A stretch of DNA of 64,000 nucleotides from positions 1,116,001 through 1,180,000 of the forward strand of contig JAZGTN010000025.1 of assembly GCA_037783415.1 (NCBI GenBank), read 5' to 3'. The DNA is from Leptasterias polaris. Lineage: Eukaryota; Echinodermata; Asteroidea; Forcipulatida; Asteriidae. This document shows, piece after piece, positions 3,556 to 49,300 of this stretch. Positions within the stretch are counted from its first letter, which is position 1. Every line of letters starts with the position of its first letter. The notes beneath the pieces were generated by a model, which saw only the letters and a list, made by a program, of their open reading frames with translations, was not told the origin of the DNA and searched no databases. Position numbers and translations under genes: made by a program.

Positions 3556-3770
3556 TTAAAGTGCGTGGAAAATGAGAAGTTTCCATTCAATCCACTTTCA
3601 AAATCTAGTTGCTGATGTATCAAACACAACATACAAGTATACAAAGATAATTTTTCGAAATTGTAAAAAGATTAAAAAAAGGAATTTTTAAAAAGCCCGC
3701 GCGTCGCGATTCTGAAAATGCAGAGGTCACGATCGGTTGTTGCGCAATGGCTGTGACGTCATAAAGGAGA
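3556..3770. repeat. Left inverted-repeat blocks flanking the P2RX7_C gene
   Basis: Two exact blocks recur in inverse orientation downstream of the gene. TTAAAGTGCGTGGAAAA at 3556..3572 matches 6725..6741, and ACGTCATAAAGGAGA at 3756..3770 matches 6517..6531. The gap between blocks is 183 bp here and 193 bp on the other side. The inner block overlaps a palindromic CRE/ATF-type TGACGTCA (3755..3762), so it could also act as a promoter element for the gene starting at 3891. Confidence 0.5.
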
Positions 3771-3890
3771 CTGACTAAGTCTGGTACCCATATAACTCAA
3801 GCACGCTACGCACGCCGCCACACATCATGTAATAATGTGCGTGCATTATTCCATTTATTGTCCGCTTATTCTTTCTTCGACGAAGCAAAC

Positions 3891-4189
3891 ATGTCAGACT
3901 CTGAAAACTCCGGTGACGAATTTTGGGAAGAAATCAGTGTTGATTCTGATGGTTTCAGTGAAGGATCTGAAAGTACGTCAGGGGGATCGGGAGACAGCGA
4001 TGACGTTGAACCAGACGATGAGGATGAGGTGGTTCGTGGGGCTGAACCATATAGGTTCGAGCCACTGGCAAGACCACGCCAACAGCAAGGTGACGCTGCT
4101 GGCGATGATGACGCCGACGACCCCGATGAAGACCAACGTGATGGGAATGACCAAGCTGCAAACAACGAGCGATTGAACAATACCGACTG
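3891..4189 (+). CDS. P2RX7_C-domain gene, exon 1 (acidic N-terminus)
   Basis: Starts at ATG (MSDSENSGDEFWEE) and ends in phase 2 (...NNTD + TG) at donor GTAATT. It encodes 99 codons, rich in D/E/S, with a short basic patch (LARPRQQQ) near residues 59-66. Two other frames of the same stretch are open over more than 100 codons because of composition, but only this frame joins the conserved exon 2. Confidence 0.85.
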
Positions 4190-5341
4190 GTAATTTTAAT
4201 TTCTTAATCATTGACATAGTACTATAGTTCTCTGATTTTACATAGCCGGTGTAGGCCTTTGCTGATATTTATGACAGCAAAACACGTACCCATGTATTCT
4301 CACTCGTCTATCTACACAATGCAAAGACAGCTTTGTTTGTGAGTGGTTTTCTGCAACTCAATTCAATTCAATTCACTTTATTTCCAAATCCAAACAAATA
4401 AACAAAACACTTGGGTAGTGAATAAAGAATTATGTTTTACAAGTAACTGTTAGTGTCTAATTTGCCACGATGTCAACCAAATGCAATTGAGTTTTGTACA
4501 TAACTGTTGAGTTAAATTTATTGCCACAGTTCTCTTAAAAATGTCTGACTTAATTGTCTTGCTTTTTGAATTGAAGGTGTTCCTGTGGTAAATGTGTGGT
4601 GATGGAGTTCATTCATAACTGCATTTGCTGTAAAGAGATTGAAGCCATACAGCAGAAAATCATTCATACTGGAGTCGACACTGAGGGGTTTAGTTGCTTT
4701 ACAGACCATCCCTGGTATGAGGCTACGTGTCTCAACCCCGGAACACTAGAGACGGCGTACTATGCGTACAGACAACAGTATGGGGCTAGAGCTGTTGAAG
4801 GTGACCTTCCACGGTAATAGTTAATTTTCAATGTTTAAAAAATTTTTTTTGTGTGTGTGTAAGATTTTTGAACCAAAATAGAAGCACAGAACCTGGTTAT
4901 TATATTCAGATAATCTATTTTATGAGTACCGGTACATACATGAACATGTATCAGGAGACTTTTCCCACCCCCACAATAAAAGCGACTCTCTTGATAAGCC
5001 CATTATTCCTTGTTTGAGCCCATTTCGTCAATCCCACTTATCCTGGTAACACTGATACTGGTAACACTGATACTGGCTAGTACATTGGTCAATTCAACGT
5101 AACAAATGGACAAATGATATACAGTTTGTTGATTGTAAAACAAAACGTTATTATTTTTTTATTTCACAGAAAGTACAGACATGTGTCTTATCGGCAGGTG
5201 ATCAGGTGGTGTTATGGTTACCTTGGAAGACACAACCGAGTGCCCCTCCCAGCATGCATAATGGGAATAACCAGAACTACTTTCCCCGATGAAGGAGGCA
5301 ACTATGAAGGGTTTAGATTTCCTGACCTTGATGACATGTAG
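3891..5341 (+). CDS. P2RX7_C ('ballast') domain protein, stand-alone, three exons
   Basis: Exons 3891..4189, 4577..4813 and 5170..5341 join in consistent phase into 235 codons plus stop TAG. Residues 1-98 are acidic and low-complexity (runs of D, E, S), likely disordered. From about residue 95 (RLNNTDWCSCGKC) to 222 it matches the cytoplasmic C-terminal domain of the ATP-gated channel P2X7. It shows CxCxxC, then CICC, then C-F-T-D-H-P-W-Y-E, ETAYYAYRQQYG and KYRHVSYRQVIRWCYGYLG. In P2X7 this domain binds a zinc pair and GDP/GTP. No channel transmembrane segments or ATP-binding ectodomain occur nearby, so this is a soluble orphan version. Many invertebrate genes annotated 'P2X purinoceptor 7-like' have this form and their role is unknown. 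Splice sites are all GT-AG. ATG 3891 is chosen because the upstream in-frame stretch lacks an ATG. Inverted repeats flank it (see findings). Confidence 0.88.
4577..4813 (+). CDS. P2RX7_C-domain gene, exon 2 (zinc-cysteine half)
   Basis: Acceptor TTGAAG|G completes the W codon, then CSCGKC. The 78 whole codons carry the metal-binding cysteines (C-S-C-G-K-C, C-I-C-C-K-E, SCFTDHP, ATCLNP) and end with the conserved YAYRQQYG region. Donor is CG|GTAATA, phase 2. Confidence 0.87.
5170..5341 (+). CDS. P2RX7_C-domain gene, exon 3 (C-terminus)
   Basis: Acceptor TTTCACAG|A completes an R codon. It encodes KYRHVSYRQVIRWCYGYLG, then LPACIMGITRTTFPD and a short GGNYEGFRFPDLDDM tail before TAG. The R-Y-R-H-V-x-Y-R-Q and LPAC motifs are the hallmark end of the P2X7 ballast domain. 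AATAAA signals follow at about 5596 and 5622, suitable for polyadenylation. Confidence 0.87.
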
Positions 5342-19983: not shown

Positions 19984-20488
19984 TATTCACAGTGTTAACA
20001 CAAAACCTTGTAAACTTTGAAATCCTACTTTGAAATTTCTCCTCTGTGGACCCTAGTTAGAATCCCACCTCAAACTGAAGTATTGAAAGGGATCGGGTTT
20101 TCATTCTTCATCTGATTCCAAATGTTTATCCCATTCTGATGTTATCTTCTCAAATCTCAGAATATGTTTTCCTCTTATCTTGTCACATTTCATTGACTTT
20201 AGGCATACAGCTAAAAGTCCTTGTCACTTTAAATAATCCCATAGTTTCAAGACCAGAAAAGAAAAAAAATACGTTTTTGAAGCATTAAATCCAAATGCAA
20301 AATTAATATGATGTGTTATTGAATTTAAAGTATTTCTTAAAAAACACATTTCTTTATTTCAAAATACAGCCCACAAGACAAGATTCCCCAAACAAGGGTC
20401 ACATCCCACCCTGTTCTCACAACTGTTGTGGTCTGCCAGAAATTCCACATGTAGGCATATGCAACAGAGCATTTAAGCTTGTTATGTA

Positions 20489-21187
20489 TGAGGCGCCAAG
20501 TGTAAACTTATTATTTAACGCAATTATTTACAAATAATTCATTATATAATATATAATTCATTATTTAACCATTATTTAATCTTTATTTACAAATAATCAG
20601 TTTTGCACCACACAATTGTTTATATATAATCGTATAAAAGCTTTCATTATATATATATAATCTTAAACACAATTTCATTATTTACAAATAATGTCGACGG
20701 ATAGATTTTTATATATAAATAATTAACTTTGCACATGCAATTATATGTATATAATTTCTGGACAACTTTCATTATATATATATAATTTAACGGATCATTA
20801 CACTTATATATAAATAATGACGACTGACAAAATTTATATGTAAATAATTTATTTTACACATGCAATTATATAATAAATAATTGTTAGGCAGCTTTCATTA
20901 TATACATATAATTTTGCGGATCATTATACTTATATAAATAAATAATATCGGCTGACAAAATTTATTTGTAAATAAAGAATTTTGAACCACACATTTATAT
21001 ATAAATAAGGAAAACTATTACTTTACAACTAAGCGAACGAGGCTATGATATACTAAATAATGACTTTGCGTTGCTTTCATTATATATAAATAATCGTGTA
21101 GTATGTAAATTAAGTTTGGTTAGCCCCGCCCCAATACTCTAAATATTCACATCAAAACACAGTCTAGTCTAGTACTACACGCTCAGA
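20489..21187. repeat. Left terminal inverted repeat of the 5.1 kb element
   Basis: Pairs with 24900..25605. The inner edge is marked by CACGCTCA in both arms, shortly after the shared CCCAATACTCTAAATATTCA. Near-palindromic A/T motifs recur throughout and would let each arm fold on itself. Confidence 0.78.
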
Positions 21188-21269
21188 CTTCATGACTTAC
21201 AGTCATGCGTACAGTGAGTACATTTTGTACAGTAATGTACACTGTACGTGTACAGTCAACTGTCGTTTC

Positions 21270-22856
21270 ATGATGGGTTTCGTGCAGCAGCCATTTAAAA
21301 TCCTCGGTTACAGTTACAAAACTTGACAAATTTAGCTCTTTAGAGAACATTCCTCTATCAACAGTGCCCACATACATCACCACCCGAGAAGGAGACCAAT
21401 TTAGTTCAATGACATTTTGGTAAGTTACGTTATAAAATGTTATTCTTGATGGTAGCTACGTAGTTTACTTCATTTCAAATGACGGATAAGTGACCGATAA
21501 ACTTAGTGCTGCATCTAATTCGTGAAAACAATGTTGTTGTTTTTTCCCCAATAACTGATGAAGATTTGCTACAATTACACTTCATGGCATTAACTGATCG
21601 GATAATGTTTGTCGAGTAGGACCTGTTTGGTTGAATTTTGTTGTTAATTGGCAGTCACCAAAGTTGTGCACTGTTTTTTTTTATAATCCTACCCAATTTT
21701 GTGTTTTATTAGTTAACAGTGACACTGACAGTAACACAACACTCTATGTCTGTAGTATTAATTAACAGATTAAATTTAAAGTTCCATTTGCTGAATATGC
21801 TGATTATGCTGATGCACTGTATTTTTGTAATACACTGTTCTTTTGAATAATTTGTTAATGTTTTTACTATTTAGATTTGTTATTAATTTTAACAACTAAA
21901 TTATAAATATGAATAAAGTAGTAATATTTTTCTGAAGGAAAATACATTATGTGATTCTGACTTTTTACATTAAATGCAATGAAATTACATAAATTAAAAC
22001 AGGGGGCAGTAGTGAGTGACAAACTAGTGGTGATGTGTATTACATGTGTACTCATTGTTGCATCAACAAAACGTCAGTGGGGTACCAGTACCACCATGTC
22101 GAGGGCTTTGCTTGAGGATTGGACTAGTACAGTAGTATTCATCAACTTTGTTAAACATTCATTGTTTTATTTTATCTTTTTTTAAGGATGCATATATGCA
22201 CAGTTGGAGGGGAGACTTTTGTTTTAGAACCACCTCGACACAAGGCTGAGTTGGTCTCCAACGAGACAAAAGGGTACTTGAAAACTGCATAAATATATAA
22301 GGTAGGTCCCTATGAATTACAATAAAACTGTTCATTTATCAAAACGTTTAGACTGACTACCCATAGTCTAGAACTGGGTACTTTTTAATAACATTACTTT
22401 CCACAATTTACAAGACATCCAACACTAATAAGTGGTGAACTGGAGCCTGGGGAGGCCAAAGACAATCCCATGTTGACATTTGTTATTATTTTCAAGGAGG
22501 AAGAGGAAGAAAAATCTTCAAAGGTAGTTGGAAAAAATATCATAAAAACATCCAATCCCGTAAAAAGTGCAACAACTTTTGTTTGTTTGAAATACAATGA
22601 TCATCCATGGTGCTTAACTATGGAGAGTTGCATTGACTATTTGATTATATTGACACAACATTAAAACAATTTCTCATTTCAGTTACAAGGCATACACGAA
22701 TCTGCAGAGGCAATCACATTGTGAGAAAATCTTTGGTGTGATAACCAGTTTCTTCAAAGCAAAACCTGTCGTCGGCTCTTTTAAAAAAGGATACAAGAAC
22801 TCGTCAGTAGAGGATATACCACCTGTGATTCAGCAGAATAAATATCACCTGTGATT
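21270..22856 (+). CDS. Possible three-exon gene inside the 5.1 kb element, unknown family
   Basis: An open stretch from about 21265 (SHLKSSVTVTKLDKF, TTREGDQFSSMTF) ends at a consensus donor TTTTG|GTAAGT (21419/21420). A strong acceptor, T-rich then TTTAAG, at 22187 continues the same frame (WMHICTVGGETFVLEPP, RHKAELVSNETKGY) to a stop at 22292. If the weak donor AAAAGG|GTACTT at about 22274 is used instead, the frame enters a third block after acceptor TCATTTCAG at 22680 (YKAYTNLQRQSHCEKIF, KPVVGSFKKGYKNSS) and stops at 22856. No start codon or known domain is identified. It may be the element's transposase or an accessory gene, perhaps decayed. The exon between 22417 and 22664 (E-rich frame) is an alternative. 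Confidence 0.35.
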
Positions 22857-22885
22857 ATGTTGGTATAAACCAACTCTGCAGGGAA

Positions 22886-23008
22886 TGATTTCATCCAGCA
22901 ATTTTGCATAGCAAAATATTTAGACTGAACTTGTTTTGTGCACACTGAATGCTAATATTGAGTAGCAACTCCTGATTTTTGAGTAGCAACTGATGCATTT
23001 TGTGTAGC
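22886..23008. repeat. Dispersed repeat, copy related to 29752..29892
   Basis: CATCCAGCAATTTTGCATAG and GAATGCTAATATTGAGTAGC recur in the same order, with about 80% agreement, at 29752..29892. No coding potential seen. Confidence 0.55.
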
Positions 23009-23012
23009 AATA

Positions 23013-23170
23013 GACCGATCCATTAAGCCCCGCCTCCTTACGAGTTGACCAATCACAGCCGCGAAACCCGATCACCGTTAGTGCAAAGATCACCAAACGG
23101 CTCAAATGGTGATAAGATTTCGCGGTTGTGATTGGTCAATGAGAAATGGGCGTGGCTTAATGGATCAGTG
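23013..23170. mobile_element. 158-bp MITE with TA flanks
   Basis: GACCGATCCATTAAGCCCCG at the left is inverted as GGGCGTGGCTTAATGGATCA at the right. A second pairing is TTGACCAATCACAGCCGCGA against TCGCGGTTGTGATTGGTCAA. TA sits on both sides (23011 and 23171). It folds into a long hairpin and is nested in the 5.1 kb element. Confidence 0.7.
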
Positions 23171-23840
23171 TATTCCGTTTGCTATACAAGGGAAATCGTT
23201 CACTGAACTGTCAAAGTAACAGCTAGCAAACTGGTGTCCTTATTTTGTTTGCCACTAAACAACAGCTGAAAAACATTAGAAAAAGTTAGAAAACTCACCA
23301 TTAGCCTAAATGTAGACAGATATAATGGTGTATCATTATTGAGTGAGTCAACGTTTTTAATTTTTACATTAACGCTTTCCTCCAATTTTATGAGATGAGT
23401 TCATCGTTAACTTTTTCAATTTTGAAGAAAACAAATATATTTATAAGCACTGTCTTTGTATTGTTTTGCAAATCAAGGTTGTATACTTTTAGCTAATTGT
23501 TATTCCATTTTTAAGTGATTCAATTTGTGATAGATTCATTGTGCCACAGTATTACTTTTATTGCATCTTTTACTCTATTGTCAAAGTATGTTAGTTTCAT
23601 TCTAAAAGACAGTCATCCTACTCCAGAGTTCAGAAAGCAGAACTAATCTTTACAAATGTCTTTGAGGACTGCCTCAAGGTTTGTTGATTTTTTAAAGTTG
23701 TGTATTCTTGAAGGTTCCAGTGCAAGGTATAATTTTTAGTTTCTAAGGTTATTTATGTTGTTTGTACTTTTATTTGAATAAAAGGTTTTATGTTTCATGA
23801 ACTGATCGGTTTTCTTGACAAAAACAGTAAATAATATTGT

Positions 23841-23915
23841 TTACCCTTACACCGATGTGCATTAAGCACTCCATACTTCCCCGAGTTCTATGAAAAAAAT
23901 CCACAGGATTTGTTT
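23841..23915. repeat. Dispersed repeat, inverse copy at 27985..28070
   Basis: TTTACCCTTACACCGATGTG followed by GTGCATTAAGCACT and CCCGAGTTCTATG is found reversed at 27985..28070 (GAACTCGGGAAAGTACTGAG ... CATCGGTGTAAGGGTAAAAA). Confidence 0.6.
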
Positions 23916-23984
23916 TTTCATTTAAAAAGTATACGTGACGCCCCAGACATTTTTATTTAGCTCGTCTTCAATACTTGATTCTCG

Positions 23985-24380
23985 CATAATAATAATAAAG
24001 ACTTGTTATGCGCACATATCCACCCTGCTGGGTGTTCAAGGCGCAGTAAATCAAAAACAAACAAAAGAAACGGATACAACTAAATTATTCCTTGAAAACC
24101 TGTGACATAAGATAAGGTTTGAGAAGTGATTTCAATTTTGTGGTACAAAGACAACATCAAAGATTATGTGGTAGAGAGTTCCAGATGCGTGGGGCGCAGC
24201 TGCAGAAAAAGACCTGTCGCCCCAGGAGTGTTGAGACTTGGGTTCCTTGAGGAGAAGCATGGTACTGGATCGAAGATCCCTTGACGGAGTGTAAACTTGA
24301 AGTAGTTCTGAGATATAGTGGGGAGCCTTGCCGTTAAGTGCTTTGTGGACAATGAGCATCAGCTTGAAGATGATACGCAC
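23985..24380 (-). pseudogene. CR1/L2-like LINE: reverse-transcriptase C-terminus and 3' tail
   Basis: The minus frame from 24380 reads FKLMLIVHKALNGKAPHYIS, ELLQVYTPSRDLRSS, WGDRSFSAAAP. After a frameshift it gives WNSLPHNL and LKSLLKPYLMSQVF before a stop near 24090. This is the typical end of a non-LTR reverse transcriptase (KALHGxAPxYIxDLL, LRSS, GDRAFSxAAPxLWNSLP). A 3' tail follows to the (AAT)n run at 23990. Truncated and frame-shifted, so non-functional. Confidence 0.7.
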
Positions 24381-24814
24381 AGGGAGAACCTTGTATTAAC
24401 TGACAAACCTTTTAGCTTTTCAGTCACATATTTAGTGCGTTCCGCGGGTCCTATTTTCTTTTATTTTTTGCATGTCCTTAAAAAATACCCCTCTTCGATG
24501 CATTTATCAAACAAAATCAAATTGTTTTTCTCGGGCACACAATGGTTTTAATCTCATCCATGACTTTCTTCCACACGGCTACGTAAGATTTCAGCCTTTC
24601 CTCTATGTTCAGCTAACCGGATTATAATATAATGTTGGATGCTGCTGTTGGACCTGGACATTAACAATACACTCATTGCTCAAGATTAAAACCATAAGAG
24701 TAGCCAAGCAGAGGATCGTAGGACACTCAATTCACAACTTGAAAAACACTGCAAAAAGGGACCGCGGTCTATACTTTCACCACCTGATTTTGCTTGGCTG
24801 TTGCACACGTTTTT

Positions 24815-24885
24815 ACATACATGTACATGTATGTACATCGTATGCATACATGTACATGTATATGTACATGTACATGTACATGTGC
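24815..24885. repeat. ACATGT/TGTACA simple repeat
   Basis: Interleaved TACATG and TGTACA units form a palindromic simple repeat just inside the right arm of the 5.1 kb element. A weaker counterpart (GTACAGT units) lies just inside the left arm at 21205..21255. Confidence 0.6.
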
Positions 24886-24899
24886 AGCTCGCAGAAAGT

Positions 24900-25605
24900 A
24901 GACTGTGAGCCCGGTGAGCGTGTAGACTGTGCCGGATGTTATAACATGAATATTTAGAGTATTGGGGCGTGGCTATACACTCAATTTACATATAACACCA
25001 TTATTTATATATAATGAAAGCAGCGCACAGTCATTATTTAGTATATCATAGCCTCGTCCGCGTAGTTGTAAAGTAATAGTTTTCCTTATTTATATATAAA
25101 TGTGTGGTTCAAAATTCTTTATTTACAAATAAATTTTGGCAGCCGATATTATTTATATATAAGTATAATGATCCGCAAAATTATATGTATATAATGAAAG
25201 CTGCCTAACAATTATTTATTATATAATTGCATGTGTAAAATAAATTATTTACATATAAATTTTGTCAGTCGCCATTATTTATATATAAGTGTAATGATCC
25301 GTTAAATTATATATATATAATGAAAGTTGTCCAGAAATTATATACATATAATTGCATACGTGCAAAGTTAATTATTTATATATAAAAATCTATCCGTCGA
25401 CATTATTTGTAAATAATGAAATTGTGTTTAAGATTATATATATATAATGAAAGCTTTCATACGATTATATATAAACAATTGTGTGGTGCAAAACTTATTA
25501 TTTGTAAATAAAGATTAAATAATGGTTAAATAATGAATTATATATTATATAATGAATTATTTGTAAATAATTGCGTTAAATAATAAGTTTACACTTGGCG
25601 CCTCA
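24900..25605. repeat. Right terminal inverted repeat of the 5.1 kb element
   Basis: Reverse complement of 20489..21187 with scattered substitutions and one ~15 bp length difference near the inner edge. Divergence is low, so the insertion or a conversion event is fairly recent. Confidence 0.78.
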
Positions 25606-26114
25606 TAGTTATGAACACACAACTATTCCTGCAACAACAGGATACACATGGCCTCCATTGGTTTACACCTTTTGTTGCAGTCGTCAAGGCAACTTTTCAG
25701 GAACAGGCAAACCATGGCAAACCATTGAAAACCAGTTGTACACAAGTCTGTTTTTAAAGAAATGGGTTTGAACTTTGAATGACCATGACTGATTTGTTTC
25801 TGTGAATTTTGGTGATTGTCCTGTGAGGTAATCCTCAAACTTAGTCACCTACTAAGAAATGTAACTCAAAGACAAATGGATCAGTGAACTTTTTCTTCAG
25901 TCTTTTTTTGTTGTGCTTGTCTGGGGGCTTGAGTGAAATTTGGGGAAACTCCCAGCAATGAATAAGTTGACAATAGGATGGGTATGTAGCCGGACTCCTT
26001 TAAAACTTGTAAATGGAAGGATAATTTTAAACAAATACTTAGATCGATGATAATATTAAACAGTTCTGGCAAACCTTATATATTATAGATTTAGATGTGA
26101 ATTTGAGTCTAGTG

Positions 26115-26879: not shown

Positions 26880-29800
26880 AAGTTTCAAGACATTTTTTTA
26901 AAACTGATCCAGTGTTGTTTCAATATGAACATTGAACATGACATCATATCAGACCTTCACCCTAAAATGCAAATGACTTTTCAATCGACAAAATGTCTTT
27001 AAAATGCCAAATGAGTTTTGATAAAGCTACACAAACTAATGTTTCCAATGCACACTTGTTAGTGGTATTGTTAAAAAGAAATCAAACAAAAATCTGCCTT
27101 ATCTTATAAAAAATAAAATACACACAGTTCTCAAACTCAGACACAACTTCAGAGTTGCAAATAAAAGTGGATTGCCATCCACAGCAGAGTCTTTAAGTTT
27201 TCTTTGGCCCATTTTTACCAAACAAAAGGGGGAAATTGTCTGATCAGCTGGGGAAAAAAAAGTTGCATGCTTATAAATGTAAAGTGTACATATTTTAAAA
27301 AACACACATGTGGAACCATAAAACACTATATTCATTTTTCATCACAGCACTCACTATAAATAATAAGGGCCAACACCCAAGATGATTGATAGCTACATGT
27401 ACTGTAGTGATAATGTCACCACCTTCCAAGATGCTAACCAATGCCCCTGCAGGGAAAGTGTACAAATTCACCCCAGACAAATACTGGAAATTAATCTGTA
27501 TTTCCATACACTCCAGTCTGAGTCACTGTGTCTTTCCCCCTGACAACCAACGTGTTCAGTTTGATTTACAACAGATTGGAAATTTCTGGCTCTGGTACAG
27601 TAGTGTCTGTTTTTTATAGGAAAAAAAAACCCCAGGATTGATATTTATTGAAAACAAATGATTAGTGTCAACTGTTTGGAAGCTGGATGACTGTTAAGTT
27701 TATAACAGCCCCAAACCTCCAGAGAAATCTTCATGCCATCAAAGTCGAGAAAATAACATCTGAAGAGCCCACAAATCACTAAATGTATATTATTTCACTT
27801 GCACTTTTGCAGTGATTGATTGTACAGTACATTATAATGTATGACAATTTTAATTTTCACTAAAAATGAAAACCACCTACTTAAGGCTGAGTCATAAAAG
27901 AAACTTGTGAAATTTTAATCCGAAGGCCCACTTGTTGCCAACCAGAACTAATTTCATGTTAATTAGTGATTTCATGTGATTTGCCTGTGGATTTCTTTTC
28001 ACAGAACTCGGGAAAGTACTGAGTATACAGTGCTTAACACACATGTCATCGGTGTAAGGGTAAAAACCAAATTATAATTTCATGTAAATATTTAAAAATA
28101 AATGCTGAATTGTAAGCATTACATAGGTCTGTGAAGTTATATTTTAAAAGGTGTTTTACTTTTAGGTGTTTTGTTTTAAAACTTAGAAGATCATAAAGAA
28201 TTTATTCTTTCAAAACCCAATAATGAATCATCCTTTTAAATGAGAGATTTATAGATTGTGAGTTAGAAGTCAGTTCTCCCATGGTGAGATCATGAAGATA
28301 GAATGAATAAATCAAGAGGGGGACGATGCACTGGTGAAATATTTATTTTCATTTCCTGAAGATACAGTAGTAAAATGTCAACCACAGAGTGAGAGTTAGG
28401 GACGTGCTGATTGAACTGTTCAAAACACTGCGCTGACTAAAAATTTTCAACACAGGTGTCCACTAGTATCCACAACTCCCACAATTAGCAAGTGACAACA
28501 AAATACAAGAACAATGGAACTAGTTTGCAGTATTGGCTATGGGCAGTGTCTCCTTAAGGGTAGTTCTGAGAAAAGCCATGAAATGAGACCCTACAATTTT
28601 AAGCTCCATGGTGTTTCTGTACTTTGTTATAACCCGACAAATTTGTTCAAAGTTTCTTTCAGAACCCTTGCAGACTAGTGCAGCCCAATTCCTTCCATTT
28701 CCTCTTCTACATTGATTCAATGTCCCTCAAAACCAAATGGCTTGAATTTAGATAACATTGAGTGTTAAGTTCAACTCTTAACTCAGTACCTCAACTTGAA
28801 ACTTTAAACTCAAAAGAAAAGATACCCTGAATAAGATTGAAATGCCTGACACTGTCAAACGCAATTATTAATGGGCGTACCGGCCCCAGTCCTTCCTAAT
28901 CCTTCACTTTGGCAAGTGGGACTGTAAGGAATAATGGTTAATGTCAATATTATTATTATTATGATTATGGTGGTATGCCTGTTCCCATGTAAAAGCAGTT
29001 TAGTGCAGTCCTCAGTTAGTCCAAACAGAGTCAAACAAAACATGCAGTTGATTAAATCTTATATCAATAAAAGAATTCATCCCTAGAATACTATACTGAT
29101 ATTAAAGGTTTGGACTAATAGGCATGTCTTATTTCTAAATTGTCTGATTTTGTTAACAGTGAAACTGAAATTGCATACTTTTGAACCTGACCTCTATCTA
29201 CTCACGAATGTAAACAAGCATTCACAGTGTGATAATGACCTTAGGAAGTAAAGGTCAAAGGTCAACAATAACATGAGACAGCAAACATTAATTAAAGCAC
29301 CTTGTTCTTCTTATGAGTTAACTCAGATAAAATTTTTAACTTGTGGTAGAATGACACTTTTCATTTACATCCACTTCAAGAAAAAAATAAGAAATGTGTG
29401 ATTTTAAAGAACAATATTAATTATTGTTTGTATACTTTCAATGTTTGTTTTAGAAAACAGCCAATCCAAAAGAAGATTTTAAAAACTACTTTTACTTTGT
29501 GGAACACTCAATCTGCAAGGACATTTTCTCCATTGTTTGTTATAGCTTCATCATACATGTAAAAACAAATTGAGTTACAAATACCGATTTGTGTGTGTGA
29601 AAGAACCTTTGAGCATATCAATTAATTGGATTTAATTGATGAATGATTGATGTATTTGGATGTAATTATTTGTCACATGGAAGTTTTGTTTGATTGCTTT
29701 TTGGAATGGTGGTTTCCCTGCTTGGCAAAAAAGTACATATACAGTTTACAATTCCATCCAGCAATTTTACATATATATACATGTAGGGAGCAAATAGACT

Positions 29801-31900
29801 AAACATGTTTTATGCACACTGATGAATGCTCATATTGAGTTAGCAAATGATGATTTTTGAATAGCAACTGAGACATTTGGGTAGCATTTTTCCACACTGC
29901 ACGAAGCAAACTGTTCACTGACATTCCACCACAAGTCTGTTAACCCCAAAAGAAGCCGGTTCCCTGTAACCCAGTACAAATACAATGCGATTATTGTCAC
30001 CCTTGGGTGGTTGCTCATTCAGTCCAGAAGCAGGTTGGCTTTTTGAACTCCACTCAACTCTACAACAAGGAGTCCCTGGGATGGATTGGGTTGTTGTTTT
30101 TTACGCAGTAGGAGGTATAAATTATAAAACCACAAACTGTGTGATAAATGGGCTTGCTGTGTGGAAAGTGTCTCCAAAGAGACTGGGGGGATTGGTTTTA
30201 AAATATAGGATAAGTATGGATTGAAATAATGGGCAGTCTATTCTTCTTTTTGGGGTATGGGGATAAACTGGCATCACGGTGGCTCACATTTCAACTTTCA
30301 ACTTACTTACAAAAACAGCCCGAGGGGAGGGGATGCTTGATACTTGTTCACAGGCTGATAGGGCCATATCAGCATGCATTCTTTGACTTTGGAATATATT
30401 AGCTTGTTGGGGAAATAATATTTAATTAACCTTGTTGGTATTGCCTGTATAGTACCAACAGTCGACATTCATTCTGTCTATACTACAAGTACAATGTAAA
30501 CCAATCCATACAGTTTGAATTGTACATATATACAGGGCCTACATATTTTTTAGAAGATGTATCTTTCCCTTGTGGTGTCAGATTTGAAGTAATTACAAGT
30601 CAAAAGCATAGACACTTGTTTCTTTATTGGAAAGAATGATTGTATTATGTAGGCCTACTTGTAAGTTGTAGTGAATACAATTTTACTCACAACTTCACTA
30701 TATTTTAAAAAGATGACAGAAAGTCCACAAAATAAAATAACAAGAGGTGAAAATTGTTTTTACACAAAGTTTAGTTTTAAAATGTTTGTTTCAACAGAAA
30801 TAGTGGTTGCTTAGAGAACCCAAAACATGAGACCTGCCATCAATACACCATTTCATTTTTACAGACCAGAGCACTAAAACACTCCCAAACATAAACACAA
30901 TAACATCAATTTATCACTTTTATGCCCGACTCACAACAAACATGAACATTTATTGAACCTTTATTCCCAATGATTGGATATTCACAAGTAGTTAGGTAAA
31001 AGCACTCGATCATAGGCCTAACATAACGCCGCTCAGTTCAGCCGCAGAGTTTCAGCAATCACACAAACACTTCACATTACGAGTATAAATTATCCAACCA
31101 ATTCGGCAAAATTATACAAAGGTAAACATCGCAATATCTGCTCACGAGTGACTCAACCACCTGTGTTTGTGGACCAGTGGAAAAGGGCTGGCGCAGTTTC
31201 AGTTTTTATCTGAAGCAGCAGGTCCCCGAGCTTTGGACCCTACACTTGCTGTGCACACTGTTATTATATTGGACAAACAGGACTTGAAGATCATGGGGAA
31301 AGAACCTAGACAGGAATGCTGATAAATTGTTATCAGGATCCTTTAGGTTAAAACTACTATTTTGCAGGGCAATTTGGAAGGATCTCCACTTTGTTTGTTT
31401 TTATGATAATAGATGGCAAGCTGATGAGGTATGACGTACTTAAAAGAGGACCAGATTTATGTTATCATTGTAGGAAGTTATCAAACTGGATTTTAAAATC
31501 ACATAGGCCCTACTTGGTGTTATTAAAATGTTTTTTGATTTTTCTCGTATTTAGTGAATTGTAAAAGATCAGGGCTTGAATCAACCAACAGCATCCACAT
31601 GCCCAGCAATTGTCGTGGTGCCCTGTGCCTTTGCTGCTTATTGTGACCTATTTAAGTTGCAAAGTCCATATTTGAAGTTACATTTCGCAGGTGCGAGGGT
31701 AGTCTTGGTGCAAGACATTGTTGTTCACGCTGTTGGGAAAACTTCCAGATCACCCACCACATCGCAATTCTGTTGATTGCGCTCGACAGATGAACGAGAG
31801 TGGACTCATCAGAATTCTCAAGCGGACGATTTGGGTCATCCTTTTAGCAAAAAAATTATATTTTTTGAAATATATCTGTTATATTAATCATACCCTCCAT
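26880..31900. other. 5 kb without a recognisable gene
   Basis: A/T-rich DNA. It contains the dispersed repeats at 27985..28070 and 29752..29892 and an ATT microsatellite at about 28950. Several frames of 60-80 codons are open on either strand, but none shows splice context or a recognisable motif. Confidence 0.35.
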
Positions 31901-43300: not shown

Positions 43301-46300
43301 GAAACAAAAAGACAAAAATCAATAACAACCAACTATGTTTGATGATTAACATTTGTAAACACATTTTGTACGCAGCCTTTGAGCCTATCCCCACATCGAA
43401 CCCTTTGCACAAACATAAAAATAATGAAAAGTTTGGACTAGGTGCTTACCTCTCCCATAGATTTGTAGTCCACCGGCCATGAGGATTCCGGATAAATATT
43501 CTCCAGATACCATTTGAAACTTTTGCACTGCAATTTTTCCCGAAGCTTCAGCCGATCCGTCAAATCTCCCGGGTCGGTTTTAGCAACGACGGGAGAAATC
43601 CGGTAGTAGAAGTGCTTGTACTCGTCCAGCCACACCTCTGCGAGACGCTTGTTGTTACGATTGACGTAGTTGGTACCCGGCGGGAAGTGGTAAGGGGACT
43701 TCTTCCGGAAGACGTGACCAACGTGGGAGCAGGGCACGAATTCCAGTTTTCCACCGCACATCCAAAGCTTAAAGAGAATAAATATTTGTTTTAAATAATA
43801 TATTTGACGAATGTGGTAATCATACTAAATTTGAATTCTTCTTGGTATTACCTTGTAATATACACAGCAGAAAGTGGAAGCCCAACTCATACAACTCATC
43901 AATAAAAAACATTTAGATGAAAATAGAATGAGGGGTAGATCAGACAGAAGAAGCAATGACAACATTACACCAAAAAGAGGACAGGGAAAAAAGCACTGCA
44001 GATGGCAAAGAGGCCAGCACAAAACAGAATATCACTAAGAATGCTGACCAACAGATGCTGTGTGGCAAATCATAACAACTTGTTGTCTTTGCCTTCTCCT
44101 TTTTCCACAGATGTTCCACTTTTTAGTCTGTCTCATTCACTATTTGATTACCTTTCCTACCTCATACCTCCCTTGATTTTGTCTTATTGTGGTTAAACCA
44201 GCCCCTTCCCTCCACAGCCCTTTGTCTCCTTCTTCATGTTCATCCCTTGTTTTTTCTGTGTGTTTTCTGCCTCTCCCTATCTTTTCATTTCTTTCCACTT
44301 GACTGCTTCTGTTACACCAGTCTACTTGTATGTGTGTTGTGTTGTCATTAAGCCTTCAAAAAGATTCTGCTAATAGGTTCAAAATGTCAGGACATTCACC
44401 TTTTTTGTGCATTTATACCATAGGGTCCTATTGGTTGGTAAACAGTTTGCAAAAGCTAATTCTATTTTCTCAATCATAATAGGACCATGGTAGCAATGAC
44501 GATATGTAGAAGCGTTCATGCATCAAAACTATGTTAGAGCAACAACAAAAGTGAATACATTTCATACCTTAAAGGAGAGTTCCAAGTTCTCACCGCCCCA
44601 AATGTTGAACCCTGGATCATACAGACCCAGTTCTCTAAAATAGCTTTTATCGATTGCGAATAGTCCTCCAGCCATTGTAGGTGACCTGTTGACAAAAACT
44701 AAAATGTTCAGATCGTTTTGCTTCTACACACTTTTGTAATAATAATAGACCTTTCCCATGAAATATGCTAATTACACTCACGCCTGCATACACCATAGAG
44801 ATGTGCACTAAGCAGACGCACAAACACGTATGCGTCACGCCACCATCAGCCCCATACAAAAGGCGCAATGTTCCATCATTTTGCCAACCAAAGTGTTAGT
44901 GCGCACGAGCTATGTGTAACTTACATATTTCATGGGAAGGGTCCATTGTGTAGGCACTCCTTTTAAAATGGTGTTTAACTATAAGTTCTCTGAACTTCAA
45001 ACAAGTATATGAATAAAATGTAAACCAAAATAATAAAACAAACTAAGATAGAAAAATTCCCAGTACAGCACACAGAAGTACTGCTTAGCTGAAAGGGGTT
45101 AACCAGTCAAGATACTGAGCAATGTTATTGCTACTGACTGGTTCCCTGTTATGTTTACCTTAGCAAATTAAATTGTCAAGAAATAATCTCTGCTGTTTAA
45201 AACAGCTCTATGAAATTGGGCCCTAAGCAGAATACACAGCTTAGCAAATTTTACTGCTAAGCAAAAATTAGCAAGAGACCAGTTACAAACAATACACATT
45301 ACACGGTACTTTGGCTGGTAACCTGTTTCTGCTAAGCAACATTTTTCTTTGACAAGCATTTTTTTGGGCTGTACAGCTTCATGAAAATGGGCCCAGAACT
45401 GTGGCATGTAATGGCTCTTTGATCTTACAGAGCTGCCAACATTTGCATCTTGCAATCAGGGAGATTTTCATGTCTGCTCATCAGAACATGGACAGATTGG
45501 TTAAATGGAATCCGGAAGAGTTGGCAGCTCTGATGTTAGGAAAGTGGTGACAGCTGACCAGTATCCCTGAGAATCTACTCACTGGAGAGGTTCAGTGTTG
45601 TCCCCCTTGCGTCTCTCCCTCTCCCTGTGTGGAATGGGGTACCATTTGAAGAATAGCGACCAGCCGAACCCGCCCATCTGAGGATCATTGCCATGCTGAT
45701 ATCCAAAGTTCTCATCGCTGATGACGTCAATGACTGGGCACACAGATGTCTTCCTGCAAAGAGAGATCAAACGAAACACATCTTCAAAAACTCAAATATT
45801 CAAGTATGCAATGTTAAGGGGGAAAAAAGAAAAAATTGCCTGACACAAACAAACTTTGCACAAGTTTACCTTTTGTGTCGTAATTTTCACACATATTCAT
45901 GACTTATAAAAGTAACAGCTGAGCAAGTTTTGAGATGTGCCCCCTTTTCTTCACTTCAAAAAGTTAATAAAAAATCAGACATTGCAATCTTGTATTTCAT
46001 GGAGAATGCAATGTCTGATTTTTATCAACTTTTGATGTGAAGAAAAGGGGGCACATCTCAAACTTGCTCAGCTGTTACTTTTATAACTCTTTGAGTTTAT
46101 GTGAAAATTATGACATGCTTTCTTCCACTTGAGCTGTGTACAAATCGTGCGGGAAATCCAGGTTCTGTGGCCCTTTTGTAAATATGTGATGTCACAGGTC
46201 ACATGGTATACATGTATGTGCACCCCACTAAACACCCCATTAAATGGGGGGTAAACAGTGCGACGGCCTCAACAAATATGCTATACTAGACAAATTTGAG

Positions 46301-49300
46301 AGCCAAATAAACGGGGTACAGTGTAAAAGGGTTGCTCAATTGTGACCTGGGGTTGATGACATCCAACTTGTGGTATTTTGCAAAACAGATGCCCTGAAAA
46401 AATTGTCCTATTTGCTAAGTGGTGCAGGGAAATTTTTTCAAGATTGATGCTCGGACGCTTGGAAATTTACACAAGTGTAGGGGTGTTTTTATTTTGAGGG
46501 AGAATAACTCAACGGACCTTGGGACAACACATGTCAATTTGAACAGAGGATAACAATTTAGGAGTTAAGGGATAATTTTCTCTTCCCTGTAAAAAGCTGT
46601 TAGACTTGTAAGTATTTTAAAAGTATTTTTTAATATTTAGCGTTTTGCACTGTATGCTACAGGAGTTTATTAACGGGACCCACCCACAGGGACTAGGGGT
46701 ATCTACAGCCAAAGTAAACAGCGCCCTCAAACAGCTCTTCTCATGCAGCTGTTCATCATGTTTTAGGAATGATCAACACTCATGAGTACAGCCTATCAAT
46801 GACTAACCCATTAACACACAGCAGACTGTTAACGATCGGCACGGTACATGCAGCATCTGTGACTCTCCCACCACATAATAATTATATACAATCACATGAA
46901 ATGTTGACCGGATTGCTAGTCTTGGTCTCAAGCCTTTTTCTGTGATGTTTTTATCCTGGCCAAAATTTTGAAAGCCTGAGATCAGAAACAAGCAGTTGAC
47001 TGTTTTAAGCATTTCCGCAATACATGGAGCATCTGTGACTCTCCCAACACTTAACAAATATTGCAATCACATAAGATGTTGACTCGATTGCTAGTCTTGG
47101 TATCAATACTTTTTTTATGATGGTCTGATCTTGGCCTTAATTTTGAAAACCCCGAGGTCTTGGTCTCTGACTCAAGCCCTTCCAGATTTCAAACTTTTCA
47201 ATCAAGACAAACAAGATATTTTCTTTAAAGACAACGATTCTGATAATTATAAACACATACCGACAGTGAAAGATTCCACATGTACCGCTACGCATTTTGC
47301 GATGCAATTTTAAAAAGTAAACCACAAATTTGTGATCCATAGTGTGATACATTTATTGCACCATTTATTCTTGATACAAATAATTTGACAACGTCTTTTT
47401 ATGGCCTTTTCATATACTTTTTTCTAAAAGAAATCTAATGCTAAATTGATTAGCATAAACATTTCAATGTGCAGCCATTGGCAGTCAATGGACGACAAAA
47501 ATGTAAGTTTCCTCTACGGTTTTCAAGGCATGCAGCACAATACAAACAACTGGCCGTTCATTAAACCATATTGTTTGGGGGGAGGGGATATGTTAATCTT
47601 ACCCCCAAACCAGTGTTGTTCGACTTTTGTTTCTACCAAAACTGAGAAAATCTTATTCCTTCCCTTTGCCTTCCCAGCATTCATCGAACCATTAGCTATG
47701 TTTTTTAATGAACCCAATTTCCCGGACGAAAAAAGAAAACGGCAGATGAACTTTCTAAGTCTCGGCGACCAACTTCCTACAAACCTAGCCCCTCAGTGTT
47801 CCTATGACTCATAGCAGAGGGCCAAATACCTGCACCTGGCTAACGCTAACTTCACCATCCCCCAGCATTCAAACTCAATTATGCCGTCAGGTAAGGTAAG
47901 GTATACCATTTGGACGTGGTCAATAGGCTGGACCAGAGTTGTCTTCTTTAGGTACCATTCATAATGACTAAAGTAGCCACCAACCTGTTTCCCCAAGCAC
48001 CCCAAACACCATCCCCTCCCCACCCTTTGACAAGCCCAACAGTCGGCAGCTGTACAGGGTGGTGCAAAAAGAAGGAAACCCACTTTGGAATAAAGCCATA
48101 AGTGGATAAACAGGTTTGTACCATGAATTTATTAAACTACCATATCTCAGAGACAAAATAGGAATTTGCAATCATTTGTTTTCTTCGTCACTTATGTTTA
48201 AAGATCATTACTTTAATACTATTGGATTTTTGTACTTCAGGGAGTACTTCAGGGTGACACCTTGGCCCCATTCCTCTTCATCATTGTCCTTGACCATGGC
48301 CTGAGAAAGGCAAACGTCGGTAAAGAAGAGGAGCTTGGTTTCACCTTAGTTCCCCGCAAGAGCTGACGTGTGCCTCCTGTGACAATCACTGATCTGGATT
48401 TTGCGGATGATATCGCGATGGTTTCAAACACAATCGAGCAGGCATAGGACCTGTTACTGTCAGTCGAGGAGGAGTGCCTGAAAGTTGGCCTCCAGCTGAA
48501 CACAAAAAAGACCAAGGTGATCGCTTACAACATCAATGACCCCCTGTCCACACGAGGGACGGCACAACTCTCCATTTTGAATCCGACTTCAAATACCTTG
48601 GATCCTGGATCAACTCCAGTGAAAAAGACCTGAAGATTCTAAAAGGACAGGCGTGGTCCGTGCTCCACAGCATGAAAAAGGTGTGGTCATCAACACTGAG
48701 TGTCCGGCTGAAAAGGTCACTGTTTGTGTCAACAGTAGAAGCAGTACTACTATACGGAGCTGAGACCTGGACCCTCACCACCAAGATGGAAAAGTCTCTG
48801 GATGGTTGCTACACCAGGATGCTGCGTATGGCCCTAAACATCTCCTGGCAGGTCCATATGAGAAACTCCAACCTGTATGCTGGCTGGCCAAAGGCTACAG
48901 AAAAGATCTGCAAACGCCGCCTCAAGCTTGCTGGGCACTGTGTCCGCCACTCGGAGCTTGTCGCTTGCCCAACCATCCTCTGGGAGCCCACACAAGGCAA
49001 GGCTTCTCGTGGGAGAAGATGTCTTTCCTTCGTAGATACCCTGAAACGAGACACCGGCTTGGCCAGCGCTGAGGAACTACGCTCCTGCATGCTGGATCGA
49101 AATATCTGGACAAAAATCACTGGGCAGGCTCGAGCTTCTACATGGCGCTCGACTTGATGATGATGATGATGATTGGATTTAACTTTTGAAATATGCTCAA
49201 AAAGTTTGTGAAAATTGCAGACATGGTTTCCCTCTTTTTGTAATCACCCCAGCAAGCAGCAGCACCAGCACTATGACCTCACAGTACCAATCTACATAAG

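What the first reader, a model, noticed from the sequence alone, without database searches (positions are those of the whole stretch)
20489..25605. 5.1 kb element with ~700 bp terminal repeats made of regularly spaced A/T palindromes
The two arms are near-identical inverse copies, and each holds about twenty small self-complementary motifs (TTATATATAA, ATTATTTRYAAATAAT types) separated by short unique spacers. Termini are TGAGGCGCC/GGCGCCTCA with TA on both sides. I know of no standard superfamily with this arm architecture. The motifs could be arrays of transposase-binding sites or form multi-hairpin arms. Interior sequence includes a possible spliced gene with no recognised domain. This is my leading candidate for something undescribed.
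Basis: partly seen in the sequence, partly recalled or inferred. Interest (0 to 1): 0.8.

Follow-up and report, generated by a model that had tools for sequence, protein, structure and literature searches.

The report
Jumping gene with helically phased arms
This is a recently active family of DNA transposons in an animal genome whose long end-repeats carry about fourteen small A/T palindromes spaced almost exactly three turns of the double helix apart, probably a landing strip for the protein that moves it.

Summary
The element is real: near-identical inverted arms, with boundaries 20487-25607. TA belongs to the element (5'-TATGAGGCGCC), and the target duplication is 6 bp, GTTATG. Of 19 complete copies including the window's, 15 have an exact 6-bp duplication, 1 has one mismatch and 3 have none. 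The genome holds 230 termini (control 2). The target site is weakly palindromic.

Six-bp duplications with TA..TA termini are the published signature of IS3EU/GingerRoot transposons. No recognisable transposase was found in the copies examined, so IS3EU membership is likely but unproven.

In the left arm, 14 A/T motifs repeat every 31.53 bp, or 3.00 helical turns. Half-sites are conserved while central symmetric pairs often fail to pair. This favours a phased array of dimer-binding sites over hairpins. Arrays inside long arms are known from foldback elements (Tetris, Galileo), so this is a new variant, not a new kind.

Whether they encode something is the best open question.

The parts
20481..20486 (.). 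left target-site duplication GTTATG
   Evidence: exact 6-bp duplication in 15 of 19 complete copies
25608..25613 (.). right target-site duplication GTTATG
20487..25607 (.). whole element, 5121 bp, termini TATGAGGCGCC...GGCGCCTCATA
   Evidence: 230 termini in the genome
20487..21115 (+). left arm (terminal inverted repeat; alignable with gaps to about 21140)
24979..25607 (-). right arm (terminal inverted repeat)
20492..20497 (.). terminal G/C palindrome GGCGCC, left
   Evidence: sequence
25597..25602 (.). terminal G/C palindrome GGCGCC, right
   Evidence: sequence
20582..21009 (.). phased array: 14 A/T motifs of 16 bp, period 31.53 bp, within a roughly 126-bp higher-order repeat
25085..25512 (.). 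the same phased array in the right arm (period measured in the left arm only)
20523..20538 (.). outermost A/T motif, out of register with the array
21079..21094 (.). innermost A/T motif, 85 bp from the array
21287..21536 (.). interior conserved block A
22337..22876 (.). interior conserved block B
   Evidence: region 22330-22870 has 98 candidate places in the genome
22878..23205 (.). 328-bp stretch absent from the older copies L037, L044 and L048: probably a nested insertion, including an imperfect palindrome at 23045-23139
24132..24395 (-). fragment that looks like the 3' end of a non-LTR reverse transcriptase, present in the family's interior (resemblance recalled; no Pfam match)
   Evidence: similar frame in L031, L037, L039, L045, L050
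24818..24883 (.). TACATG microsatellite, the most variable part of the interior

Best explanation
It is one copy of a young, high-copy, non-autonomous cut-and-paste DNA transposon with foldback-type arms. SHOWN: fixed termini TATGAGGCGCC...GGCGCCTCATA, 6-bp target duplications, a weakly palindromic target site, about a hundred copies, and no recognisable transposase in the copies examined. INFERRED: it is moved in trans by an integrase-like DDD/E transposase of IS3EU/GingerRoot type, which cuts at the TA ends and joins them across a 6-bp stagger. INFERRED: each arm's 14 A/T palindromes (half-site TTATWTR) are binding sites for a dimeric protein (the transposase, an accessory protein, or a recruited host factor). 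The three-turn spacing would put all dimers on one face of the helix, so that a regular filament or bundle forms on each arm and brings the two ends together.
For: 15 of 19 complete copies have exact 6-bp duplications, 1 has one mismatch, 3 have none; all 19 start TATGAGGCGCCAAG. Two of 3 short copies and the 23.1-kb copy also have exact duplications. 230 termini against a control of 2; of the first 100 listed, 76 form 38 inverted pairs under 15 kb, 28 of 38 being 4.7-5.6 kb. Target palindrome: G or C 3 bp outside the duplication in 31 of 36 half-sites, P 4e-8 uncorrected over 13 positions; T at duplication position 1 in 1 of 36. [quoted passage not shown] Array: period 31.53 bp, residual sd 0.83 bp over 14 motifs; motif pairwise identity 0.76 against 0.457 (sd 0.013) shuffled; spacers 0.31 against 0.269 (12 of 13 spacers used); conserved half-sites with symmetric pairs 6/11 and 8/9 complementary in only 8 and 6 of 14. 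Between old and young copies the arms hold 3 fixed differences in 952 columns against 34 in 1596 of the unconserved interior. No transposase: six frames of the window copy have no Pfam match; in the 18 fetched complete copies the only frames over 175 aa are two reverse transcriptases.
Against: No autonomous partner was found. Genome matches to rve_3 were capped (150 scored of 979 candidates), many in Gypsy-sized frames; 41 of the 150 were compared by position with 140 of the 230 termini, the nearest being 7.0 kb away; the shorter frames could not be read. Some copy-specific inserted frames have no Pfam match (L040, L042, L043, L044, L056, C24 pieces). No Repbase comparison was possible. The array period alone could come from old tandem duplication, and motif columns are not significantly less variable than spacers among 45 recent arms (0.14 of rotations). 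The arms' fixed-difference deficit is not significant once shared changes are added and compared with singletons (P 0.26). A 719-bp copy has lost most of one arm; its junction is unique in the genome, so it does not show whether mobility survives the loss.
Confidence: 0.6

Rival explanations
1. It is a Tc1/mariner-like element with TA target duplications.
For: TA flanks TGAGGCGCC on both sides in the window.
Against: All 19 copies carry the same TA because it is part of the element, and immediately outside it 15 of 19 have 6-bp duplications that differ between copies.
Confidence: 0.01
2. The arms are A/T-rich tandem repeats left by slippage and unequal exchange; the palindromes bind nothing.
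For: There is a 126-bp higher-order repeat with about 80% matches. Recent arms show no significant motif constraint.
Against: Motifs stay alike at each lag tested (0.73-0.81) while spacers agree well only at lag 4, i.e. 126 bp (0.53). Motif centres keep a 31.53-bp register to within 0.83 bp over 14 units. Arms carry few fixed differences between old and young copies, though not significantly few by the widest count (P 0.26).
Confidence: 0.2
3. The motifs act as hairpins or cruciforms, with single-stranded arms as the recognised structure.
For: The arm folds as single-stranded DNA with z = -6.05 against 20 shuffles.
Against: Symmetric positions 6/11 and 8/9 are complementary in only 8 and 6 of 14 motifs, while each half-site is conserved on its own. 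Folding strength is expected of any inverted-repeat array. Clean 6-bp duplications point to ordinary double-stranded strand transfer.
Confidence: 0.08
4. The element is autonomous and encodes an unrecognised mobility protein, or an array-binding protein, in a small spliced gene within conserved blocks A and B.
For: Blocks A and B differ from old copies by 0.6-1.9% against about 4.9% elsewhere. Lineage-level changes are depleted there (7 of 718 columns against 74 of 1596) while singletons are not (29 against 86); odds ratio 0.28, P 0.0045. One frame in block B (22654-22851) has 7 silent against 8 replacement or stop changes where about 3.2 to 1 was expected (not tested for significance).
Against: The block limits were chosen. 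The other candidate frames are near expectation and stops occur in some copies. No Pfam match over cut-off, and the one frame searched had no relative among 5.8 billion proteins. Copy L038 shows no difference between blocks and rest (P 0.73). Blocks A and B total only 790 bp.
Confidence: 0.1
5. It is derived from another superfamily with 6-bp duplications (Polinton, hAT6 or Dada).
For: 6-bp duplications occur there: Polinton per PMC10045372 passages; hAT6 from a reference title in PMC12730594; Dada recalled.
Against: TA..TA termini are the stated IS3EU signature. Polinton termini (AG) and hAT termini (YARNG), both recalled, do not match TATGAGG. The only Pfam matches in the copies scanned are of retroelement type.
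Confidence: 0.1

Closest known systems
IS3EU / GingerRoot DNA transposons (incl. Styx of Zymoseptoria)
   Same: TA..TA termini and 6-bp target duplications (PMC10045372 and PMC12730594, passages). Styx: 6-bp duplications and a DDD/E transposase suggesting common origin with IS3EU (PMC10853768, passages).
   Different: No transposase is encoded here. The termini TATGAGG differ from the TAYGG of fungal IS3EU. The arms are about 650 bp with a phased palindrome array; the passages read give a 36-bp TIR for Styx and 'longer than 30 bps' for fungal IS3EU. Homology of ends could not be tested (Repbase not available).
Tetris foldback element of Drosophila virilis
   Same: Long TIRs with internal tandem repeats, a middle without apparent coding capacity, structurally complete copies lacking conserved ORFs (PMC4079207, passages).
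   Different: Tetris repeats are about 220 bp and vary in number. Here the unit is a 16-bp palindrome every 31.5 bp, and most arms fetched are 614-632 bp long (L043 and L044 have an interrupted right arm).
Galileo (P superfamily)
   Same: Extended TIRs with tandem repeats; extra transposase-binding sites inside the repeats are stated in PMC4079207, citing Marzo et al. 2013 (passages).
   Different: 7-8 bp duplications (PMC4168063, passages), different termini (recalled) and a THAP-domain transposase.
Sea urchin foldback (TU) elements
   Same: Foldback organisation (a sea urchin foldback reference is cited in PMC4079207; the name TU and details recalled).
   Different: Recalled to have 8-bp duplications and short tandem repeats in the outer domain; not compared here.

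Membership tests
IS3EU / GingerRoot | TA..TA termini | tested here: met
   all 19 complete copies start TATGAGG and end CCTCATA
IS3EU / GingerRoot | 6-bp target-site duplication | tested here: met
   15 of 19 exact, 1 with one mismatch, 3 none; 2 of 3 short copies and the 23.1-kb copy exact
IS3EU / GingerRoot | encodes an IS3EU-type DDD/E transposase (autonomous members only) | tested here: not met
   no Pfam match in six frames of the window copy; in 18 fetched complete copies the only frames over 175 aa are reverse transcriptases; larger copies carry Gypsy-type domains; the 413- and 280-aa frames in L056 and some shorter copy-specific frames have no Pfam match
IS3EU / GingerRoot | terminal sequence shared with an autonomous IS3EU family | not testable with these tools
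   Repbase is not held; no autonomous partner found in the genome
Foldback (structural class) | long inverted arms containing tandem sub-repeats around a non-coding middle | tested here: met
   that the middle is wholly non-coding is not proven
Tc1/mariner | 2-bp TA target-site duplication | tested here: not met
   TA is constant element sequence; duplications are 6 bp
Polinton/Maverick | termini AG..CT (recalled) and polymerase/integrase genes | tested here: not met
   termini TA..TA; no Pfam match in the window copy
P superfamily (Galileo) | 7-8 bp target-site duplication | tested here: not met
   6 bp

The most novel reading that the evidence does not exclude
The 'non-coding' interior carries a small, undescribed gene or RNA (blocks A and B) kept by selection acting on the transposing lineage, for example the factor that binds the helically phased arm array. 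The element would then be a self-organising mobile element with its own nucleoprotein scaffold, rather than a passive hitch-hiker on another element's transposase.
Probability: 0.15. Interest if true: 0.75.

Novelty: new variant of a known kind. Interest (0 to 1): 0.5.

Why it matters
A 31.53-bp (3.00-turn) register of palindromic half-sites in the arms of a recently active element is an unusually clear natural design for a phased protein-DNA scaffold at transposon ends, and it gives a quantitative prediction: half-turn spacing changes should hurt. It would also give an animal example of IS3EU-type ends with foldback arms. The contrast between lineage-level and singleton changes offers a way to ask whether 'non-autonomous' elements retain selected cargo.

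Tried and rejected
Rejected: TA target duplication. Rejected: the interior as a decayed known transposase (one search gave only sub-cut-off matches, best E 0.039). Rejected: large copies as autonomous versions. L045 and L031 carry reverse-transcriptase insertions (Pfam RVT_1). The C86 copy (L051) carries a Gypsy-type frame with reverse transcriptase, RNase H and integrase zinc-binding domains. The 23.1-kb C24 copy, seen only in pieces, carries an rve/H2C2 frame (L059), a zinc-knuckle frame (L061) and two similar gag-like stretches (L060, L061, by eye); L062's 251-aa zinc-finger-like frame has no Pfam match. The C125 copy (L056) carries an insertion in its arm with a 413-aa frame that looks to me like a tyrosine recombinase; it has no Pfam match. 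C40 is a truncated copy plus other sequence with no frame of 130 aa or more. A different family sharing only the outer 11 bp was not seen: 38 hits against 29 in the control, no inverted pair within 20 kb. Strong arm homogenisation within elements was not seen: within-element arm distance 0.017, between 0.0175-0.020 (45 of 47 arms used, two poorly aligned right arms, L043 and L044, dropped). The apparent different interior of L037, L039, L048 and L050 was only inverted orientation. IMG/VR held no exact match to the terminal 21-mer. Rfam gave nothing over its thresholds for 20400-25700.
Full report
Observation. The window holds a 5121-bp element at 20487-25607 whose arms are inverted copies at 95-100%. 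The A/T motif ATTATWTRYAWATAAT (up to 2 mismatches) occurs 31 times in the window, 29 of them in the arms, against 1.14 expected and at most 4 in 100 shuffles.

Boundaries. Outside that TA, GTTATG occurs on both sides. I searched the host genome (unnamed; 630 Mb, 334 contigs) with the arm. The first look gave 235 candidates; 40 were scored and all 40 matched the full arm at 98-100%. I fetched 20 regions. Eighteen of the 20 held both arms (in L043 and L044 the right arm is interrupted), 2 (L034, L036) held one. With the window this makes 19 complete copies. All start TATGAGGCGCCAAG; 15 have exact 6-bp duplications, 1 (L037) has one mismatch, 3 (L035, L039, L043) have none. The chance of 15 of 19 is negligible. 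So TA is element sequence and the duplication is 6 bp.

Copy number and age. The terminal 21-mer (up to 3 mismatches) has 230 places against 2 for the reversed control. The first 100 listed give 38 inverted pairs under 15 kb and 24 other ends (among them both ends of the 23.1-kb C24 copy); 28 of 38 pairs are 4.7-5.6 kb, and one pair (C40) proved not to be a single copy. An interior stretch has 98 candidate places (40 scored, all at least 96%). A maximum-likelihood tree of 19 interiors has terminal branches from 0.12% to 2.9%, with an older group L037/L044/L048. The family was therefore active recently.

Target site. Joining the flanks of 18 insertions with exact duplications gives a weak palindrome: G or C three bases outside the duplication in 31 of 36 half-sites (P 4e-8, uncorrected over 13 positions) and T at the first duplicated base in 1 of 36 (P 6e-5). 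Symmetric weak target preference is usual for DDE integrases and transposases (established knowledge).

Superfamily. PMC10045372 (passages) states that complete IS3EU families always have TA..TA termini and usually 6-bp duplications, and that GingerRoot has 6-bp duplications and mostly TA..TA ends. PMC12730594 (passages) gives TAYGG..CCRTA and 6 bp for fungal IS3EU. The element meets both structural criteria. It does not meet the coding criterion. Six frames of the interior have no Pfam match at E up to 0.5. In the 18 fetched complete copies the only frames over 175 aa are an 802-aa and a 392-aa reverse transcriptase. Larger copies contain Gypsy-type domains; some inserted frames, including 413 and 280 aa in L056, have no Pfam match. 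A genome search with rve_3 scored 150 of 979 candidates, many in Gypsy-sized frames. I compared 41 of the 150 with 140 of the 230 termini; the nearest lies 7.0 kb outside a copy. I therefore say it has IS3EU-type ends and is probably moved by an IS3EU-type transposase in trans; I do not file it as a proven member.

The arms. Fourteen motifs in the left arm fall on a line with slope 31.53 bp and residual sd 0.83 bp, which is 3.00 turns at 10.5 bp per turn; autocorrelation peaks at 32, 63, 94, 126, 158 and 190 bp. Two of the 14 (20865, 20929) were placed by the register and match the consensus less well. A 126-bp higher-order repeat is present at about 80% matches. Motifs agree with one another at 0.76 (shuffled 0.457, sd 0.013, maximum 0.53 in 1000), spacers at 0.31 (shuffled 0.269, sd 0.014; 12 of 13 used), and spacers agree well only at lag 4 (0.53). 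The motifs are therefore conserved beyond what the 126-bp duplication explains. Half-sites (TTATWTR) are conserved individually, but the two halves often do not pair at positions 6/11 (8 of 14) and 8/9 (6 of 14). This fits a dimer that reads each half independently and fits hairpins poorly, although the arm folds well as a single strand (z -6.05), as any such array must. Among 45 recent arms the motif columns are less diverse than spacers (0.0092 against 0.0167) but not significantly (0.14 of rotations). Between old and young copies the arms have 3 fixed differences in 952 columns against 34 in 1596 of the unconserved interior (P 1e-4); against singletons P is 0.014, but with shared changes added it is 0.26. 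L048's left arm is misaligned in the whole-element alignments.

Natural deletions. Three short copies (719, 759, 954 bp) keep both ends; two have exact duplications, one differs at one base. The 719-bp copy keeps only 81 bp of one arm, but its junction is unique in the genome, so it may be a deletion after insertion.

Interior. All 19 complete copies share it, 4 of them inverted relative to the strand fetched. A 328-bp stretch (22878-23205) is missing in the three older copies. In pairwise alignments to the window copy, blocks A (21287-21536) and B (22337-22876) differ from L037, L044 and L048 by 0.6, 0.9 and 1.9% against about 4.9% elsewhere (P 7e-10, 1e-8, 2e-4). L049, L042 and L043 agree more weakly (P 0.02, 0.001, 0.04), and L038 shows no difference (P 0.73). 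Singletons, which arise after insertion, are as common in A and B as elsewhere (29 of 718 against 86 of 1596, P 0.18). Shared or fixed changes are depleted (7 against 74; odds ratio against singletons 0.28, P 0.0045). Columns within 4 bases of a gap were dropped before these counts (718 of 790 and 1596 of 2373 kept). Coding evidence is weak: most candidate frames are near expectation and stops occur in some copies, but 22654-22851 has 7 silent against 8 replacement or stop changes where about 3.2 to 1 was expected (untested). That frame has no relative in 5.8 billion proteins.

Mechanism. Most likely (0.6): an integrase-like transposase acting in trans cuts at the TA ends and inserts across 6 bp. 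The arm arrays bind dimers on one helical face to build the end complex or keep the element competent. The 6-bp insertion stagger is shown by the duplications; the enzyme's identity, the array's ligand and its role are inferred.

Known or new. Foldback elements with tandem arrays in long arms are known (Tetris, PMC4079207; Galileo, PMC4168063; passages), and repeats carrying extra transposase sites are stated for Galileo. I found no description of three-turn-phased palindrome arrays in transposon arms, nor of this family, in searches (open-licence PMC only; listings read, and passages of seven papers). Host: an animal; the best named relative of a GALNT exon in the window is a crinoid at 61%, which does not settle the species.

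Noticed in passing
window 43438-43824 (-): Exon of a polypeptide N-acetylgalactosaminyltransferase; best named relative crinoid Anneissia japonica at 61%.
   Followed up: partly
window 48540-49157 (+): 205-aa frame that looks like a non-LTR reverse-transcriptase fragment (recalled resemblance).
   Followed up: no
window 3765-4193 (+): 142-aa acidic frame reminiscent of the N-terminus of a piggyBac-like transposase (recalled); no Pfam match.
   Followed up: no
L039 5928-5947: The right flank of this copy reads ATATGAGGCGGTGTAAAC, resembling a damaged element terminus next to the intact one; this may explain its missing target duplication.
   Followed up: no
G000 C91:2611136, 2674489, 2736026: Three same-strand termini about 62 kb apart, suggesting a segmental duplication carrying the element.
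   Followed up: no
L056 4539-6889: Sequence inserted in the arm of the C125 copy with frames of 280 and 413 aa; the longer looks like a tyrosine recombinase by eye, but neither has a Pfam match.
   Followed up: partly
window 22954-23010 and 29795-29886: A 21-bp imperfect tandem repeat in the interior, within a stretch with an 83%-similar piece elsewhere in the window.
   Followed up: no
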